A DNA stretch of 22,707 nt from a virus. Shown in pieces: positions 1-5,738 of the stretch. A program made the position numbers and the translations under genes. The notes beneath the pieces are model-generated. The model searched no databases. It was not told where the DNA came from and saw only the letters and a list, made by a program, of their open reading frames with translations. Positions within the stretch are counted from its first letter, which is position 1. Each line of letters opens with the position of its first letter. The stretch lies in the IMG/VR virus record IMGVR_UViG_3300043431_000351, positions 1 to 22,707 of that record; one strand, given 5' to 3'.

Positions 1-1411
1 GATCGGGCGCCATAGTCGGATCATAAACGCCGACTGCTTTAGCGGCGTTGCGCAATACCGGTGGCACCGTACCCATCACACCACCATTATCAAGCGACGC
101 TTGGACAGTATTCAGTGCATTGCGGGCCATGCTGACGGCCGCCGGATCAAGGTTAGGCGTACCAGATTGCTCTGTAGGCTCTTGATTTAAATCGGTATTT
201 TCAGGGGGCCCGCCTACCTCGCCCGATGGTTCTTCAGGCAAGCCGTCGACTGGATTCACCGGTTGGGTATCCGCTACTTGCGCCGCCTGTTGTTCGGGTG
301 TGATGCCCGCGTCGACAGCCATAGTGGCGGCCTTTGTGGCGATACCTTTTACCGGGCCGACTTGGGCTTTCAGGTTTTCGGTAACCGCTTCGAATTGTGT
401 TTTAGGTTGTTCTTCGGCTGCGGGCACAACTTCAGGTGCCGGAGGTGGCGTTATCGGTGCGCTGCCGGCTTGCGACAGTATGCCGCCACCAAGGCCCATA
501 CCGCCGCCTGTGACTGCGCCGGAGGCCATAGCGTTGCCCAAACCTTCGGTAACGTCTTTGCCGGTCGCCAGGTTGGTAGCTGCTGTTTCCTGGCCGGATT
601 GGACAGTTTCTTGCCCGGCTTCCAGTGCGGCTTCGGTACCAACGGCTTTGGCTTTGTTGAGTGCGCCTTGCTTCGCGACGTCATCGGCACCGGGGATCAG
701 CAACGTGTTTATGTCACCGACACCCAGTTTTTTCGCCAATACATTTGATCCGCCGGTTATGGCGCCGGTCAACGCGCCGGAGCCCGCGGCCAAAGCTGTT
801 TGACCCGGCGTTAATTCGCCGCCTGGGGTTTCTTCACGAATTTGTTCGGCGTTGCTACCTGCGGTTACAGAGCCCTCGCCTACTGCGCCGGCTACCCCAC
901 GGGATATTGCTGGTGCCGCTTTCATGGCCGCGCCGCCGATACCTTGTCCCAATAGCATAGGACCGACGGATTGGCCTATATCGTGAGCAATGACGGAAGG
1001 GTTTTCGGCGTACTGGCCCAAGGTGTCGGTAAAGCCCTGCGCGTCACGCACACGGCGATTCGCTTCTTGCTGCTCGGGCGAATAGGCTTCTTCGAGGATT
1101 TGTTGGGTGCGCGGAAAGTCAACGCCGACAGACTCAAGTGCTTTGCCGGCCTTGCCCAAGGTAGGAATATCGGCCAAGCCGACTGCAGCCTGTCCGGTGC
1201 CGACTACGGATTTGGCGGCGGTGACCAGTGGATCGGCAATTGCCCGGCGGAAAATGCCTGACGATTCTTTAGGCGGTTCGCTAGCCGCTTGTAGCGAATC
1301 CCAATCCGGTGCGGAAGATTCGGCATTCGCTTCCGGAGCAGCGGTTGCAGGTTGTAATGAATCCCAATCAGGGGTGTCTGAAGTTGCGCCGCCGTCTGTA
1401 GTAACCGCCAT
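1..1411 (-). CDS. Large Gly/Ala-rich phage protein, probable internal virion protein (partial, 3' end outside window)
   Basis: The frame is open from the ATG at 1409-1411 to the window edge: 470 codons with no stop in any line I checked. AAAGGATC lies about 11 nt upstream of the ATG. Residues 14-20 and 35-41 carry the repeated heptapeptide PDWDSLQ. A conserved-looking segment follows (about 52-145: SGIFRRAIADPLV, GLADIPTLGKAGK, ENPSVIAHDIGQ). Gly/Ala-rich stretches with GxxxG spacing at about 150-180, 208-222 and 288-311 could insert into membranes. The remainder is Pro/Glu/Gln-rich. I recognise the style of very long ejected or 'polyvalent' virion proteins at the distal end of podovirus-like structural operons, but no enzymatic domain is visible in this part. 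It is the next gene after the 849-aa virion protein and is separated from it only by the IS607-type insertion. The gene is real with good confidence; the role is inferred from position and composition. Confidence 0.8.
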   Translation of the reverse strand, partial: MAVTTDGGATSDTPDWDSLQPATAAPEANAESSAPDWDSLQAASEPPKESSGIFRRAIADPLVTAAKSVVGTGQAAVGLADIPTLGKAGKALESVGVDFPRTQQILEEAYSPEQQEANRRVRDAQGFTDTLGQYAENPSVIAHDIGQSVGPMLLGQGIGGAAMKAAPAISRGVAGAVGEGSVTAGSNAEQIREETPGGELTPGQTALAAGSGALTGAITGGSNVLAKKLGVGDINTLLIPGADDVAKQGALNKAKAVGTEAALEAGQETVQSGQETAATNLATGKDVTEGLGNAMASGAVTGGGMGLGGGILSQAGSAPITPPPAPEVVPAAEEQPKTQFEAVTENLKAQVGPVKGIATKAATMAVDAGITPEQQAAQVADTQPVNPVDGLPEEPSGEVGGPPENTDLNQEPTEQSGTPNLDPAAVSMARNALNTVQASLDNGGVMGTVPPVLRNAAKAVGVYDPTMAPD

Positions 1412-1424
1412 TATTTACTGATCC

Positions 1425-1570
1425 TTTTTCCGTAGCCTTAAGCTACTAAATGCTCATACTCACTCGGCGAGTATGAGGTTGAATCCAACAAACCCTTGAG
1501 ATAAATCCCAAGAGCACCGTTCAAATCCCGGCTCATGGTTAAACCGCCATCCGATGTGTATTTCCGCCCA
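1425..1570 (-). ncRNA. Candidate omega RNA from the tnpB 3' end
   Basis: TnpB guide RNAs are known to come from the 3' end of tnpB plus the element's right end, with the guide reading into the flank. Here the last tnpB codons form a perfect 9-bp stem (CTCATACTC / GAGTATGAG, 1453-1477, 7-nt loop). A second 5-bp stem follows (GTAGC / GCTAC, 1432-1446) with the tnpB stop codon in its loop, and then GGAAAAAGG at the proposed end. The predicted guide starts at 1422 and reads ATCAGTAAATAATGGC, the start of the neighbouring virion gene. The upstream limit given is arbitrary. Expression is not shown by the sequence. Confidence 0.35.
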
Positions 1571-2616
1571 CCAAGATTGTGAATGACTTTGCCAGTCCAG
1601 TTCACGGTCTTGGATGTGTAGGCTTCGCACATACGGACAACTTCAACGCCTTCTTTCTTGGCAAGCCATTCAAGACGCTTTGAAAATTGGTAGTGACTAA
1701 ACGTGAGCATTGATCGCACCGACCTTTTGCGTAGTTTCCGCTTGGTTTTCGTGACCATTCCCGACACTTCAAAGTGCGGAAGGAATATCACGGAATAGTT
1801 TTCAACCAGGAAACGTGCAGATTTCCAGTGCAGTTCAGAGATTAAGTCCTTAATTTTCCACCTCAACCGGTTTGCCGCTTTCAACATCCGCTTGCGCTTT
1901 GCCGAAGACAACTTGTCCTTGCGTTTTTTATCGGCGCGGCTCAACAAGTCATCCAGGTATTTGCACAAACGAACGATACGGGCAAAGTCACCCTGTCCAA
2001 TGAAGCCGCAATTTTCAGGTGAGTAGAAACTAAGGAATGTGCGAACCCCAGGGTCAACGCCTACAGCAAGATTCGGCTTGGTTTTCGCCGACTGCGATAG
2101 TATGACTTCATGGGGTACGCACAGAAACCAACGCCCATTTTCCAACGTAATCCTTGAATCACGCGGGTTAGCTGGCAAGGTTTCTGAAAGCGCAATCTCG
2201 CCCAATGTGGTCGGGTAAATTCGCGCTTTCAGAACACCGCCGTCACGGTCTTTGATATGGTCGTTCCTGATGCCTAGCGTTTGGCGGCCCTTCAACCGGC
2301 GAAACTTAACGTCCTGCGGTTCTTTGGTGAGTGCATATTTCCGCTTGGCGGCCGTCACAGCAAGGCAAGCGTCTTCAACGGCTGCATCGCGCACAGCCCT
2401 TGGCACGTCGAAAGTGTATTCCGGCATGGAAGGCAACAGCCATTTCTTGATTGCCATGAAACTGGCAATCGTCCCAGGCTGTTGAAGGTGTTCTACCGTT
2501 GCGTTATAGACCTTCCTTGAGACGCCGAACCACTTCCGCAACAAGGTCTTCTGTTGCGTAGTGGGATAGATACGGATTTTCTTTGACTTCTGAAGCTTTA
2601 TACTTGCGCTGCCCAT
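1438..2616 (-). CDS. tnpB: TnpB, IS607-type RNA-guided nuclease / accessory transposon protein, zinc-finger cysteines absent
   Basis: The 392-aa protein (from the ATG at 2616) is the normal TnpB length. Residues 11-45 match the N-terminal OrfB-type region (KIRIYPTTQQ..., FGVSRKVYNAT). The RuvC triad is visible: D188 in GVDPG, E283 in HFEVSG and D364 in RDLNGA. The region that normally carries four zinc-binding Cys (TSKTCxxCG...CxxCG) reads YTSKTVNWTG...KYTSDGG at 333-358, so no CxxC pair remains. TnpB proteins are RNA-guided DNA nucleases that cut sites lacking the element and promote its retention. The start overlaps tnpA by 113 nt, as is common in IS607. The frame stays open upstream to 2898, but that part is only tnpA read out of frame; 2637 is another possible ATG. 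No good ribosome binding site is seen, so translation may be coupled to tnpA. Confidence 0.85.
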   Translation of the reverse strand: MGSASIKLQKSKKIRIYPTTQQKTLLRKWFGVSRKVYNATVEHLQQPGTIASFMAIKKWLLPSMPEYTFDVPRAVRDAAVEDACLAVTAAKRKYALTKEPQDVKFRRLKGRQTLGIRNDHIKDRDGGVLKARIYPTTLGEIALSETLPANPRDSRITLENGRWFLCVPHEVILSQSAKTKPNLAVGVDPGVRTFLSFYSPENCGFIGQGDFARIVRLCKYLDDLLSRADKKRKDKLSSAKRKRMLKAANRLRWKIKDLISELHWKSARFLVENYSVIFLPHFEVSGMVTKTKRKLRKRSVRSMLTFSHYQFSKRLEWLAKKEGVEVVRMCEAYTSKTVNWTGKVIHNLGGRKYTSDGGLTMSRDLNGALGIYLKGLLDSTSYSPSEYEHLVA

Positions 2617-3136
2617 ACATTCGGCAGGAGAAGACATGGAGGATGTGGAGGATGTGGAGTAGGTCTTTGGTAAGCTCGTTTTCGGCGCTACCCACGTCCT
2701 TGTCGAGAACCACGACTTCGCCGCCGGATTTTTCAATGACAAAGGTAATGAGTTCCCATCCAAACCTTGCAAGGCGGTCACGGTGGGCAACCACAAGTTT
2801 GATACGCTCTCCTTGTATCGCTCGCTCCAATATGGCACGAAGGCCTTTTCTTTTGTAGTTGAGACCGGATGCAACATCTTTGACAACTTCCTCCGCAAAT
2901 TCGCTTAAAAACGCAGCCTGTCTTTCTAAATCAGGCTTTTGCCCTGCGCTACTGACCCGCGCATAGGCCACTGTTGTTTGTTTCGTTATCGTCCCAGCAA
3001 ATGAATCCAAGTCGAAAAGCCTTTGCCCCGCTGGAGTCCTGACCGATTTGATAACCCCTGTGTCTGCATATTTCCGCAAGGTATCTTTCGATAAACCCAA
3101 CGCTTCTATAGCTTTTCTTAACGGCACTAATTTCAT
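2504..3136 (-). CDS. tnpA: TnpA, IS607-type serine recombinase (transposase)
   Basis: The protein has 210 aa. Residues 1-47 form a MerR-like helix-turn-helix (KAIEALGLSKDTLRKYADTG...TPAGQRLFD). The catalytic domain follows: YARVSS at 58-63 with the nucleophilic Ser62 by analogy to resolvase YxRVS, QKPDLERQ at 66-73, and DRLAR at 120-124 supplying the conserved arginines. A long helix with FSCRMYGQRKYK at 169-180 completes the fold. This N-terminal DNA-binding, C-terminal catalytic order is the IS607 arrangement, and the enzyme performs cut-and-rejoin through a phosphoserine link. The helix contains HILHIL (161-166), which comes from a 9-bp tandem duplication in the DNA and is three residues longer than the usual DLLxIxxVFSxR pattern. 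tnpB starts inside its 3' end. The gene otherwise appears intact. Confidence 0.9.
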   Translation of the reverse strand: MKLVPLRKAIEALGLSKDTLRKYADTGVIKSVRTPAGQRLFDLDSFAGTITKQTTVAYARVSSAGQKPDLERQAAFLSEFAEEVVKDVASGLNYKRKGLRAILERAIQGERIKLVVAHRDRLARFGWELITFVIEKSGGEVVVLDKDVGSAENELTKDLLHILHILHVFSCRMYGQRKYKASEVKENPYLSHYATEDLVAEVVRRLKEGL

Positions 3137-3182
3137 AGAGCGAATAATAACACCTAGTAGCGTTTAGTAGCAAAATAATACC
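3137..3182 (-). repeat. IS607 left end with direct repeats (probable TnpA binding sites)
   Basis: Read on the minus strand from the GG end, the 46 nt before tnpA contain CTAGGTATTATTTT and CTAGGTGTTATTATT as imperfect direct repeats. Between them are two copies of GCTACTA ten bases apart (GCTACTAAAC, GCTACTAGGT). Short direct repeats next to the crossover site are the expected layout for IS607 TnpA binding. AT-rich sequence here may also hold the tnpA promoter, but no clear -35/-10 pair is visible. Confidence 0.5.
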
Positions 3183-3188
3183 TAGCTC

Positions 3189-5738
3189 TTACTCCGCTAC
3201 GTAAGGTACTGCTTTGCCGTTTGGTCCTGCCATCCAAGGATTTCCTGCTTGGTCGTACCGAATTTCGATTTCTTTTCCGGTTGATGGATCGACAGGCGGC
3301 ATGTTGGCGTTTAAAAACCGCTGCATTTTACCGCGATATTCCTCGTCAGACTCCATGATACCTTGGCTATTTTTTTCTTGCCACGCTTTTGCGGCTTGCG
3401 TACGATCAATATCCCGCATACGCTTAGCGACTACTGTTTTAGGGCCTTCTAATTTCTCACCACCGTACTCTACTTTTACCGGTTTATTTTCGTCGGCTTT
3501 CTCTTTTCGAGACAGTTCCTGCTTGGCCGTGGCATTTTGCTCAGCCATTAGATTGTTACGCTCAGTATCGCGGGCGTCTTGCGCCGACTGGTGGATCGCG
3601 TTCTGTTTATTGACCGCCGCAGTATTCTCGGCGGTAATATCCATTTTCTTACTTTCCAAAGCGGATTGCTGCTGCGTAGCGGCGTTTTTATCTTGTTGTT
3701 CCAGTAAACCTTGCGCGGCCGCTTGCCGGCGTTTTGTGGCGCCAATCTCTGCGACATTGGTTCTGCCGTTTACGCCACCGTTCAAGGCGATATCTTCCAA
3801 ACCTTTACGCTTTTGCTCAGCCATGTACTGCTGTGCGCCGCCTGGGTAGCCTCGGTTAAGCCAGAAATCCGTGGTTCCGGCTTGTTGCGCCGCTGCCGAT
3901 TGTTGAGGTGGTGGGCTCACTATACCACCACGTTCTTTCAGGCCTTTGTATACCCGATCCATTGCCGCCTGGTTGCCGGATTGAATGTACGATTTTGAAT
4001 CCGGCAGTTCGACACGGGTTTGCCCGTTACCTTGGGTTACTTTGCCAAAATTCGCGTCCCCGTTTTGCGCCGGCCCGGCAGTCGCTTCGACGGACGGGTT
4101 AGAAAAGTCTATATTTGGACCTTCTCTGGCTTCTAGTCCAGTAGGAATCGTATTCTCAACACGTTGCGGAACAACTTCGGTCGGTGTGAACGGCTCAATA
4201 TTGGCTTTAGGAACTACGCCCTCTTCGCGTAACCGACGCGCCTTATCGGATGGTAGTTCGTACTTATTGCCCGTAACACGTTCTTGAATTTTATTGGCGA
4301 TGTCGGGTGCCGCGTAGCCGAGAGCGCCGCCTACCGCTGCGCCGAGAGGTACGGTAATAGGTGCCGCCGGGCCGCCAAAAGCACCTAGCGCTGCGCCGCC
4401 TTCGGCACCTATTAAGGCACCCGCACCGCGCGTGCCGGCTTCCCCTACGCGTCCTGCTACGTCCTCGGCTTTCATACCTGGCGTTGTAGCATCGCGTACG
4501 GTACTGGCACCTTCGATTACAGGCACCGCGGCTTGCCCTGCGGCTTGAAGTAAGGGCTTTAGTCCCGCTTTGCTGTTTTGTAGTGCGCGGCCAACGATAC
4601 CTTCGACTTCGGGTTTTACAGCGCGGACACCTTTTATGGTTGGCTCCGCCTCGTACGGTACCATAGCCGTACTAGAACTTTTAGTGTACGGACCACCTAC
4701 GGTTTGAAAATTAGGTTTGTATCCGCCCGTTGCTGTGCTGGCTTCCGCCGCAGTCGGTACTATGCCGGTTCGGGCAGGTACCGTACCTGCTTGCTGTGTT
4801 ATTTGGGCGGGTTCGGGTGCGTTACCGCTACCGAACATCTTTTTAGCAAGCGCCGCTCCGCCTGCCGCACCCACGCCAAAAGATGCTGCGTCGGTTAGCG
4901 CTTTATTTTCTTTTTCGACTTTTTCAGTGCCGTCAGCGTAGCCTTGCACTTCGTATTCGCCAGGCAAATTCAACAATTCTTCGTCCGAGGGCATGGCCTC
5001 TGTCACATTCTGAATATTTTGCTGTGGCGCCGCTGGCTGAGCTTTCTTAGCGAAACTATAAGGATTATTTGCCATACCCGGAATCGGTGGGGTGCTGGCA
5101 AACAGATTGGCTTTTGCCTGGTCGTTATTGCCGGTAGCGCCGGGTGTGATGCCGGGCATACCGCGCATAATGCCGGTACTGATTGGTTGGGTCACAGAGC
5201 CGACTGCGGATTTCACGCCAGACATGTTTGCCAACGATCCTTGTGAATAGGAGGTACCAACTTTGTTGACCTTAGTGTTGCCCAACATGGCGCTGCCCGT
5301 GCTGAAGTCGGGTTTGCTTACTCCAACCTCTACCGGTTTTGTAATATCCGCGCCCGACCTTTGTGCGCCGCCAGTAAGCGATGCTGGGGCAATCGGAGCC
5401 GAGGTTGCCCCTGATTCTATAGCAGAGCCTGGTCGATAGCCGGTTTGCGCCTCGAATGCTTTTGCAGTACCAGATCGCATGGCTTCAGACGTCGCTAAGG
5501 ATGCTGCGTGTTGCGGCGATGGTGGTGTCTGCGGACTGGTCGTTGCTCCGAGTTGATTGAACGGCACCTGTTCGGTACCGTCGGCATAACCTTGTATTTG
5601 GTTGCGCATTTCTAGCCCCTTTTGGTTAGCTTGTGCAATGGCGTCACGGCCCACCAATTCAGCGGCCTCTTTGTTTAATACGGCTTCGCCGGGTGTCAGC
5701 ATTGCCGCAACGGTGTCTGATGGTTTAGGTGTCGGCAT
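3189..5738 (-). CDS. Large Gly/Ala/Gln-rich virion protein (putative internal virion protein)
   Basis: The protein has 849 aa, with an ATG preceded by CGGAGAG at ideal spacing. The N-terminus has LTPGEAVLNKEAAELVGRD (14-32), a PGExVL motif seen in many phage tail and tape-measure-like proteins. The phrase QGYADGTE occurs at 49-56 and again at 265-272, the second directly after LPGEYEV, so the N-terminal motif is partly duplicated. Gly/Ala zipper segments lie at about 283-300 and 428-475 (GALIGAEGGAALGAFGG, GAAVGGALGYAAP) and could cross a membrane. A Gln/Ala-rich, probably coiled-coil stretch lies roughly at 665-775. No enzyme motif is seen. Its place after the tail proteins and before another large zipper protein fits an ejected virion component; this is inference. 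The IS607 element begins 7 nt after its stop. Confidence 0.75.
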   Translation of the reverse strand: MPTPKPSDTVAAMLTPGEAVLNKEAAELVGRDAIAQANQKGLEMRNQIQGYADGTEQVPFNQLGATTSPQTPPSPQHAASLATSEAMRSGTAKAFEAQTGYRPGSAIESGATSAPIAPASLTGGAQRSGADITKPVEVGVSKPDFSTGSAMLGNTKVNKVGTSYSQGSLANMSGVKSAVGSVTQPISTGIMRGMPGITPGATGNNDQAKANLFASTPPIPGMANNPYSFAKKAQPAAPQQNIQNVTEAMPSDEELLNLPGEYEVQGYADGTEKVEKENKALTDAASFGVGAAGGAALAKKMFGSGNAPEPAQITQQAGTVPARTGIVPTAAEASTATGGYKPNFQTVGGPYTKSSSTAMVPYEAEPTIKGVRAVKPEVEGIVGRALQNSKAGLKPLLQAAGQAAVPVIEGASTVRDATTPGMKAEDVAGRVGEAGTRGAGALIGAEGGAALGAFGGPAAPITVPLGAAVGGALGYAAPDIANKIQERVTGNKYELPSDKARRLREEGVVPKANIEPFTPTEVVPQRVENTIPTGLEAREGPNIDFSNPSVEATAGPAQNGDANFGKVTQGNGQTRVELPDSKSYIQSGNQAAMDRVYKGLKERGGIVSPPPQQSAAAQQAGTTDFWLNRGYPGGAQQYMAEQKRKGLEDIALNGGVNGRTNVAEIGATKRRQAAAQGLLEQQDKNAATQQQSALESKKMDITAENTAAVNKQNAIHQSAQDARDTERNNLMAEQNATAKQELSRKEKADENKPVKVEYGGEKLEGPKTVVAKRMRDIDRTQAAKAWQEKNSQGIMESDEEYRGKMQRFLNANMPPVDPSTGKEIEIRYDQAGNPWMAGPNGKAVPYVAE

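What the first reader, a model, noticed from the sequence alone, without database searches (positions are those of the whole stretch)
1405..3191. IS607 insertion cleanly placed inside a virion-gene Shine-Dalgarno and self-repairing it
Joining the flanks at the shared GG (1423-1424 and 3181-3182) gives GAGCTAGG/ATCAGTAAATA between the 849-aa stop and the next ATG. The GG is therefore part of the downstream ribosome binding site (TAGGA), and the element end (AAAAAGG) rebuilds it as AAAGGA. The insertion would leave virion gene expression nearly intact and puts tnpA/tnpB under the phage operon. The ends are seen in the sequence; the GG rule is established for IS607; the neutrality argument is inference.
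Basis: partly seen in the sequence, partly recalled or inferred. Interest (0 to 1): 0.6.

Follow-up and report, generated by a model that had tools for sequence, protein, structure and literature searches.

The report
IS607 jumping gene in phage ribosome-site

Summary
The element is real: a complete IS607-family insertion (tnpA plus tnpB, minus strand) between an 849-aa phage gene and a giant virion-protein gene. In four related phages these two genes are neighbours with no element between them. About 60 relatives end in a 5-bp RNA helix, GATNN...NNATC, followed directly by the crossover dinucleotide. The helix is fully paired in 61 of 61 relatives, with compensatory changes. The window has the same helix (GATTC/GGATC) ending at 1420, followed by AG at 1419-1418. 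The matching left end is AG at 3193-3192. AG at both ends is also seen in a Thiomargarita and a Chromatiales relative; most relatives use GG. The predicted empty site is ...GTAGCGG-AG-TAAATAATGGCGG. There the upstream gene keeps its TAA stop and GGAG lies 6 nt before the ATG. So the core idea, an insertion inside a Shine-Dalgarno whose loss is made good by the element's right end (AAAAAGGA), survives with corrected coordinates and dinucleotide. The empty site itself was not found in any database. Shine-Dalgarno targeting is not a family rule (9 of 48 insertions, no more than chance).

The parts
1418..3193 (-). IS607-family element with both crossover AG copies (1774 bp counting one AG)
   Evidence: Ends from homology with about 60 relatives, terminal reRNA helix and left-end motif spacing
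3192..3193 (-). left-end crossover dinucleotide AG (in GCGG-AG-TAAG)
   Evidence: Left-end profile peaks at 3195/3194/3193; AG left ends in L140, L148/L182, L172; must match the right-end AG
1418..1419 (-). right-end crossover dinucleotide AG (in AAAAAGGATC-AG-TAAATAATG)
   Evidence: Directly follows the conserved terminal helix strand GGATC
3156..3171 (-). direct-repeat TnpA-type motifs GCTACTAAACGCTACT; inverted copy near the right end at 1442-1454
   Evidence: Inverted repeat I4; same 10-nt spacing as GCTAAC repeats of relatives
2504..3136 (-). tnpA, IS607 serine transposase, 210 aa (MerR-type HTH plus resolvase domain)
   Evidence: Pfam; NCBIfam NF033518 163 bits, cut-off 110
1438..2637 (-). 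tnpB, RNA-guided endonuclease family, 399 aa, RuvC DPG plus alternative-E signature, no zinc-finger cysteines
   Evidence: Pfam, NCBIfam NF040570 116 bits, PDB match to mimivirus L79
1418..1560 (-). probable reRNA scaffold overlapping the tnpB 3' end; guide would begin at TAAATAATGG
   Evidence: Folds 3.9 sd better than shuffles
1481..1485 (-). 5' strand of terminal helix, GATTC
   Evidence: Conserved context TTTGNTNGATNC; pairs with 1424-1420
1420..1424 (-). 3' strand of terminal helix, GGATC
   Evidence: Covarying partner in 61 of 61 relatives; window case
1422..1429 (-). replacement Shine-Dalgarno AAAAAGGA supplied by the element's right end
   Evidence: Sequence; duplex energy -5.4 kcal/mol
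3192..3195 (-). remaining original Shine-Dalgarno GGAG on the left flank
   Evidence: Joined empty site GCGGAGTAAATAATG; duplex energy -6.1 kcal/mol
3189..5738 (-). upstream 849-aa virion-region gene; its present TAA (3191-3189) lies just inside the element and equals the native stop
2..1411 (-). downstream gene: N-terminus of a giant virion protein (open reading frames of 868-4175 aa in relatives; weak match to N4-type virion RNA polymerase N-terminal region)

Best explanation
A complete IS607-family element inserted by TnpA strand exchange at an AG dinucleotide in the Shine-Dalgarno GGAG of a giant virion gene. The predicted empty site is GTA GCG GAG TAA ATA ATG GCG. The left end begins AGTAAG, so the upstream protein still stops at TAA after ...VAE. 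The right end is ...AAAAAGGATC-AG, so the downstream gene gets a new SD (AAGGA, 10 nt before the ATG) in place of GGAG (6 nt before the ATG). The reRNA is probably made from the right end, with its scaffold closed by GATTC/GGATC. Its guide would be the phage start-codon region TAAATAATGGCGG..., so TnpB could re-cut phage genomes that lack the element. Shown: gene content, terminal helix, family ends, AG at both ends in relatives, absence of the element in related phages. Inferred: the exact empty site, expression, neutrality, TnpB activity.
For: Right end: helix GATNN/NNATC fully paired in 61 of 61 relatives anchored only on the 5' motif; shuffling partners gives a mean of 34 and a maximum of 43; types include GATAC/GTATC, GATTC/GAATC, GATCA/TGATC, GATAA/TTATC, GATAG/CTATC and GACAC/GTGTC. 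The window's GATTC/GGATC-AG is the only such site in the window. Profile 16.7 bits at 1418. Thiomargarita copies end AAAAAGGATCGG, 11 of 12 bases identical; pairwise z 5.0 at 1418 against 2.3 and 2.1 for the other candidate ends. AG at both ends in L140 and L172. Left end: best profile cluster at 3195-3193, about 1 in 300 shuffles as good. The joined site gives a normal stop, SD and start; the same 13-mer GGAGTAAATAATG occurs once in the other loci, just before the MCP start of a related phage, L039. Four relatives have the two genes adjacent without an element.
Against: No near-identical phage with the empty site was found. The left end is less certain than the right: the left-end profile slightly prefers GG 3195-3194 over AG 3193 (6.9 against 5.2 bits), and the 20-nt stretch between GG and the motif alone is only P 0.07. 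The four relatives' spacers (11-51 nt with their own SD) are too diverged to show the exact junction. L067 has AAGGAACAGTACATGGCGG before the same gene, which resembles the window's AAGGATCAGTAAATAATGGCGG and could argue that this stretch is phage-derived.
Confidence: 0.8

Rival explanations
1. Ends as the first reader gave them: GG 3182-3181 and GG 1424-1423, empty site TAAGAGCTAGGATCAGTAAATAATG.
For: Most IS607 elements end in and target GG (PMC6188088); both GGs exist.
Against: Right-end score -19.6 bits; it splits the covarying terminal helix; left-end distance to motif and tnpA shorter than in relatives.
Confidence: 0.05
2. Right end at GG 1431-1430 (..GGCTACGG) with left end GG 3182-3181 or 3195-3194, so that AAAAAGGATCAG is the phage's own Shine-Dalgarno and no repair is needed.
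For: Right-end profile 12.1 bits with a CGG end; related phages have similar SDs such as AAGGAACAGTACATG in L067.
Against: Leaves the conserved terminal helix strand GGATC outside the element; z 2.1 against 5.0; with left GG 3195 the upstream gene would have no stop before the next gene.
Confidence: 0.12
3. The element is inherited in this phage lineage and the present junction has mutated since, so no exact empty site can be read off.
For: No near-identical copy or empty site known.
Against: Both genes intact, motifs and helix intact, matching AG at both ends.
Confidence: 0.1

Closest known systems
IS607 family (IS607, IS1535, ISC1926)
   Same: tnpA serine transposase with N-terminal MerR-type DNA-binding domain plus overlapping tnpB; no terminal inverted repeats, subterminal short repeats, no target duplication
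   Different: Crossover dinucleotide AG rather than GG; carried in a phage structural operon
IS607 elements of Chromatiales, Thiomargarita and cyanobacteria (L094, L107, L126, L140, L145, L172 and others)
   Same: TnpA up to about 57% identical in these genomes, same order, same left-end motif spacing, same terminal helix plus dinucleotide
   Different: Most end in GG; L140 and L172 have AG at both ends like the window
Pro-Fanzor TnpBs (PMC10711439) and mimivirus L79
   Same: DPG in RuvC-I, catalytic glutamate moved to the EAYTSKT position, IS607 TnpA partner
   Different: Zinc-finger cysteines absent here and in 49 of the 50 relatives with this signature; not cyanobacterial
ISFba1-type IS607 TnpB (PMC11061315)
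   Same: Its TAM AGGAG resembles the window's left flank CGGAG
   Different: Its reRNA is separate from the tnpB gene (RAGATH-18); here the probable reRNA overlaps the tnpB end and Rfam finds nothing

Membership tests
IS607 family | TnpA: N-terminal HTH followed by serine-recombinase domain | tested here: met
   PF00376 then PF00239; NF033518 163 bits, cut-off 110
IS607 family | tnpB downstream, same strand, overlapping tnpA | tested here: met
   2504-3136 and 1438-2637
IS607 family | subterminal short repeats, no terminal inverted repeats | tested here: met
IS607 family | insertion without target-site duplication at a shared dinucleotide | tested here: inconclusive
   Same AG at both inferred ends, but the empty site was not found
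IS607 family | dinucleotide GG | tested here: not met
   Right end is AG after the terminal helix. Not strictly defining: the literature says most members end in GG, and L140 and L172 also have AG
Pro-Fanzor TnpB clade | DPG plus alternative glutamate | tested here: met
   DPG at 195, EAYTSKT at 338 of 399 aa
Pro-Fanzor TnpB clade | CxxC...CxxC zinc finger after the alternative glutamate (part of the published search pattern) | tested here: not met
   EAYTSKTVNWTG: cysteines absent
Pro-Fanzor TnpB clade | placement in the clade on a TnpB tree | not tested
   No tree was built; only the best PDB match (mimivirus L79) points that way

The most novel reading that the evidence does not exclude
A sub-lineage of IS607 elements, in phage, Thiomargarita and Chromatiales, has switched its crossover dinucleotide from GG to AG, the end still being set by a covarying reRNA helix. 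In this phage the AG preference put it into a GGAG Shine-Dalgarno, where the SD-like right end (AAAAAGGA) and the stop-bearing left end (AGTAA) make the insertion near-silent, with TnpB guided to the start region of the same virion gene.
Probability: 0.35. Interest if true: 0.5.

Novelty: new member of a known kind. Interest (0 to 1): 0.35.

Why it matters
It shows how to read exact ends of IS607 elements without an empty site: the terminal reRNA helix plus the next two bases. It also adds cases where AG replaces GG at both ends, which bears on how strictly serine transposases require a matching GG. The phage case is a concrete example of a mobile element sitting in an SD with little predicted damage to a virion operon. 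Beyond that it is an ordinary insertion; the SD placement is not a family rule.

Tried and rejected
Near relatives of the 849-aa and 470-aa proteins by peptide patterns in viral contigs: none. Other copies by left-end DNA or TnpB peptides in viral contigs: none. No closer TnpA (above about 57%) in 210 genomes of one order, 369 of the class and 42 of the family. nhmmer profiles of both ends gave weak, short matches and did not decide the ends. An early favourite of mine, right end at GG 1430 with the phage's own SD outside the element, was dropped when the terminal helix was recognised. A general SD-targeting rule was tested and rejected: 9 of 48 elements have a start codon 3-14 nt after the right end, against 18.6% of random GG sites. 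Rfam found no known RNA.

Full report
What is there. The window is an IMG/VR virus record of 22,707 bases. Its large genes lie on the minus strand and include an N4-gp56-like major capsid protein, an SU10-type adaptor and a LamG-domain protein. Between the 849-aa gene (5738-3189) and the next gene (start 1411, cut off by the contig end) lie tnpA (3136-2504, IS607 transposase, 163 bits against a cut-off of 110) and tnpB (2637-1438, RNA-guided TnpB family, 116 bits against 100). The downstream gene is the N-terminus of a giant protein: its homologues in four related phages lie in open frames of 868-4175 aa, and it weakly matches the N-terminal region of virion RNA polymerase and two giant PHROGs.

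The insertion is real at the level of gene order. Fifty-five contigs carry a related capsid gene. In four of them (G003, G004, G005, G011; L065, L067, L068, L066) a gene matching the upstream gene, or in G011 the corresponding upstream open frame, is followed directly by the homologue of the downstream gene, with spacers of roughly 11-51 nt and no element. They are too diverged to show the junction base by base. No contig with the same junction was found.

Where the ends are. Eighty TnpA relatives (46-56% identical) came from cyanobacteria, purple sulfur bacteria, Thiotrichales-type gammaproteobacteria and others. Comparing copies with different surroundings shows right ends of the type ...AAAAAAGTATCGG| and left ends of the type GGTTG..., with the first TnpA motif (GCTAAC) starting at base 24 in most. 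A Thiomargarita genome holds seven partial copies ending AAAAAG(G/A)ATCGG in different surroundings; the window has AAAAAGGATCAG at 1429-1418, the only site in the window within one mismatch (0.13 expected).

The deciding evidence is a helix. In relatives the five bases before the terminal dinucleotide pair with five bases 56-106 nt upstream that follow a conserved TTGG-type motif. Anchoring only on the 5' motif, 61 of 61 elements pair fully, against a mean of 34 and a maximum of 43 when partners are shuffled; the types include GATAC/GTATC, GATTC/GAATC, GATCA/TGATC, GATAA/TTATC, GATAG/CTATC and GACAC/GTGTC. Relatedness inflates the raw count, but the several compensatory types do not depend on it. 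The window has GATTC (1485-1481) and GGATC (1424-1420) followed by AG, and this is the only such site in the window. RNA folding of the right end independently pairs these strands (z -3.9). Hence the right end is AG 1419-1418.

The left end must carry the same dinucleotide. The left-end profile peaks at 3195-3193 (about 1 in 300 shuffles as good), and AG 3193-3192 is the AG at the right distance from the motif. AG at both ends also occurs in L140 (Thiomargarita: left AGTTGAC, right GAATCAG) and L172 (Chromatiales: left AGTTGACAG, right GAATCAG). L148/L182 has AG on the left and GG on the right, as expected if a mismatched exchange is resolved differently at each end (inference). The published statement is that most, not all, members end in GG (PMC6188088).

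What the empty site says. Joining the flanks at AG gives CCTTACGTAGCGG-AG-TAAATAATGGCGG: the upstream gene ends ...V-A-E-stop exactly as it does now, and GGAG stands 6 nt before the ATG. The same 13-mer GGAGTAAATAATG occurs once in the 206 loci then held, directly before the capsid gene of a related phage (L039). After insertion the upstream stop TAA comes from the left end (AGTAAG), and the downstream gene receives AAAAAGGA, 10 nt before the ATG. Duplex energies with the anti-SD are -6.1 before and -5.4 kcal/mol after; four other start sites in the window lie between -4.7 and -8.5. Near-neutrality is therefore plausible, but the new SD partly overlaps the reRNA terminal helix, which might mask it. 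Nothing here measures expression.

Is SD targeting a rule? Target flanks are purine-rich (RRGG), and published TAMs of other IS607 TnpBs, AGGAG and GAGGG, look SD-like (PMC11061315). But only 9 of 48 insertions have a start codon 3-14 nt downstream, against 18.6% at random GG sites. So this is a single lucky or selected case. The right end's SD likeness (AAAAAGG) comes with the family's A-rich tract and helix strand.

How it probably works. TnpA excises and inserts the element as a circle through exchange at the dinucleotide (established for IS607: PMC4058570, PMC6188088). TnpB with its reRNA would recognise the left flank (..CGGAG) as TAM and TAAATAATGGCGG... as target, that is, the SD and start of this virion gene in phages lacking the element, favouring retention or spread in mixed infections. 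That step is inference; TnpB keeps its DPG and alternative-glutamate residues.

Verdict. The ends and dinucleotide were wrong. The element is a new member of a known family with a minority crossover dinucleotide.

Noticed in passing
window 1438-2637 (-): TnpB has the DPG plus alternative-glutamate signature published as a near-unique fingerprint of Fanzors and cyanobacterial pro-Fanzors, but no zinc-finger cysteines; its best solved relative is mimivirus L79. The relatives with this zinc-finger-less signature include Chromatiales, Thiotrichales and others, beyond the 'exclusively cyanobacteria' of PMC10711439, whose search pattern required the cysteines.
   Followed up: partly
L200-L206 (genome G416, same genome as L140): Seven partial copies of the IS607 right end, about 70-140 nt long, all ending ATCGG in different surroundings; three share the same left sequence: possibly MITE-like non-autonomous elements using the reRNA end.
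   Followed up: partly
L148/L182 (genome G029): Left end AG but right end GG, possibly a record of a mismatched strand exchange resolved differently at the two ends.
   Followed up: no
window 2504-2637 (-): tnpA runs about 130 nt into tnpB in another frame; relatives also have long open tnpA frames (up to 314 aa), so the long overlap is shared by the group.
   Followed up: no
window 2-1411 (-): Start of a giant virion protein with weak similarity to the N-terminal region of N4-type virion RNA polymerase; homologues in related phages lie in frames of up to 4175 aa.
   Followed up: no
L002 (IMGVR_UViG_3300048672_000755): Phage contig from the same sample as a relative of this phage (L006) carrying the closest TnpA found (60% identical) with a tnpB cut short after its start, probably a decayed IS607 relic behind tail genes.
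   Followed up: no
L003 (IMGVR_UViG_3300047478_000481): A 4.1-kb contig with a capsid protein 100% identical to the window's: a near-identical phage exists in another sample, whose reads could hold the empty site.
   Followed up: no
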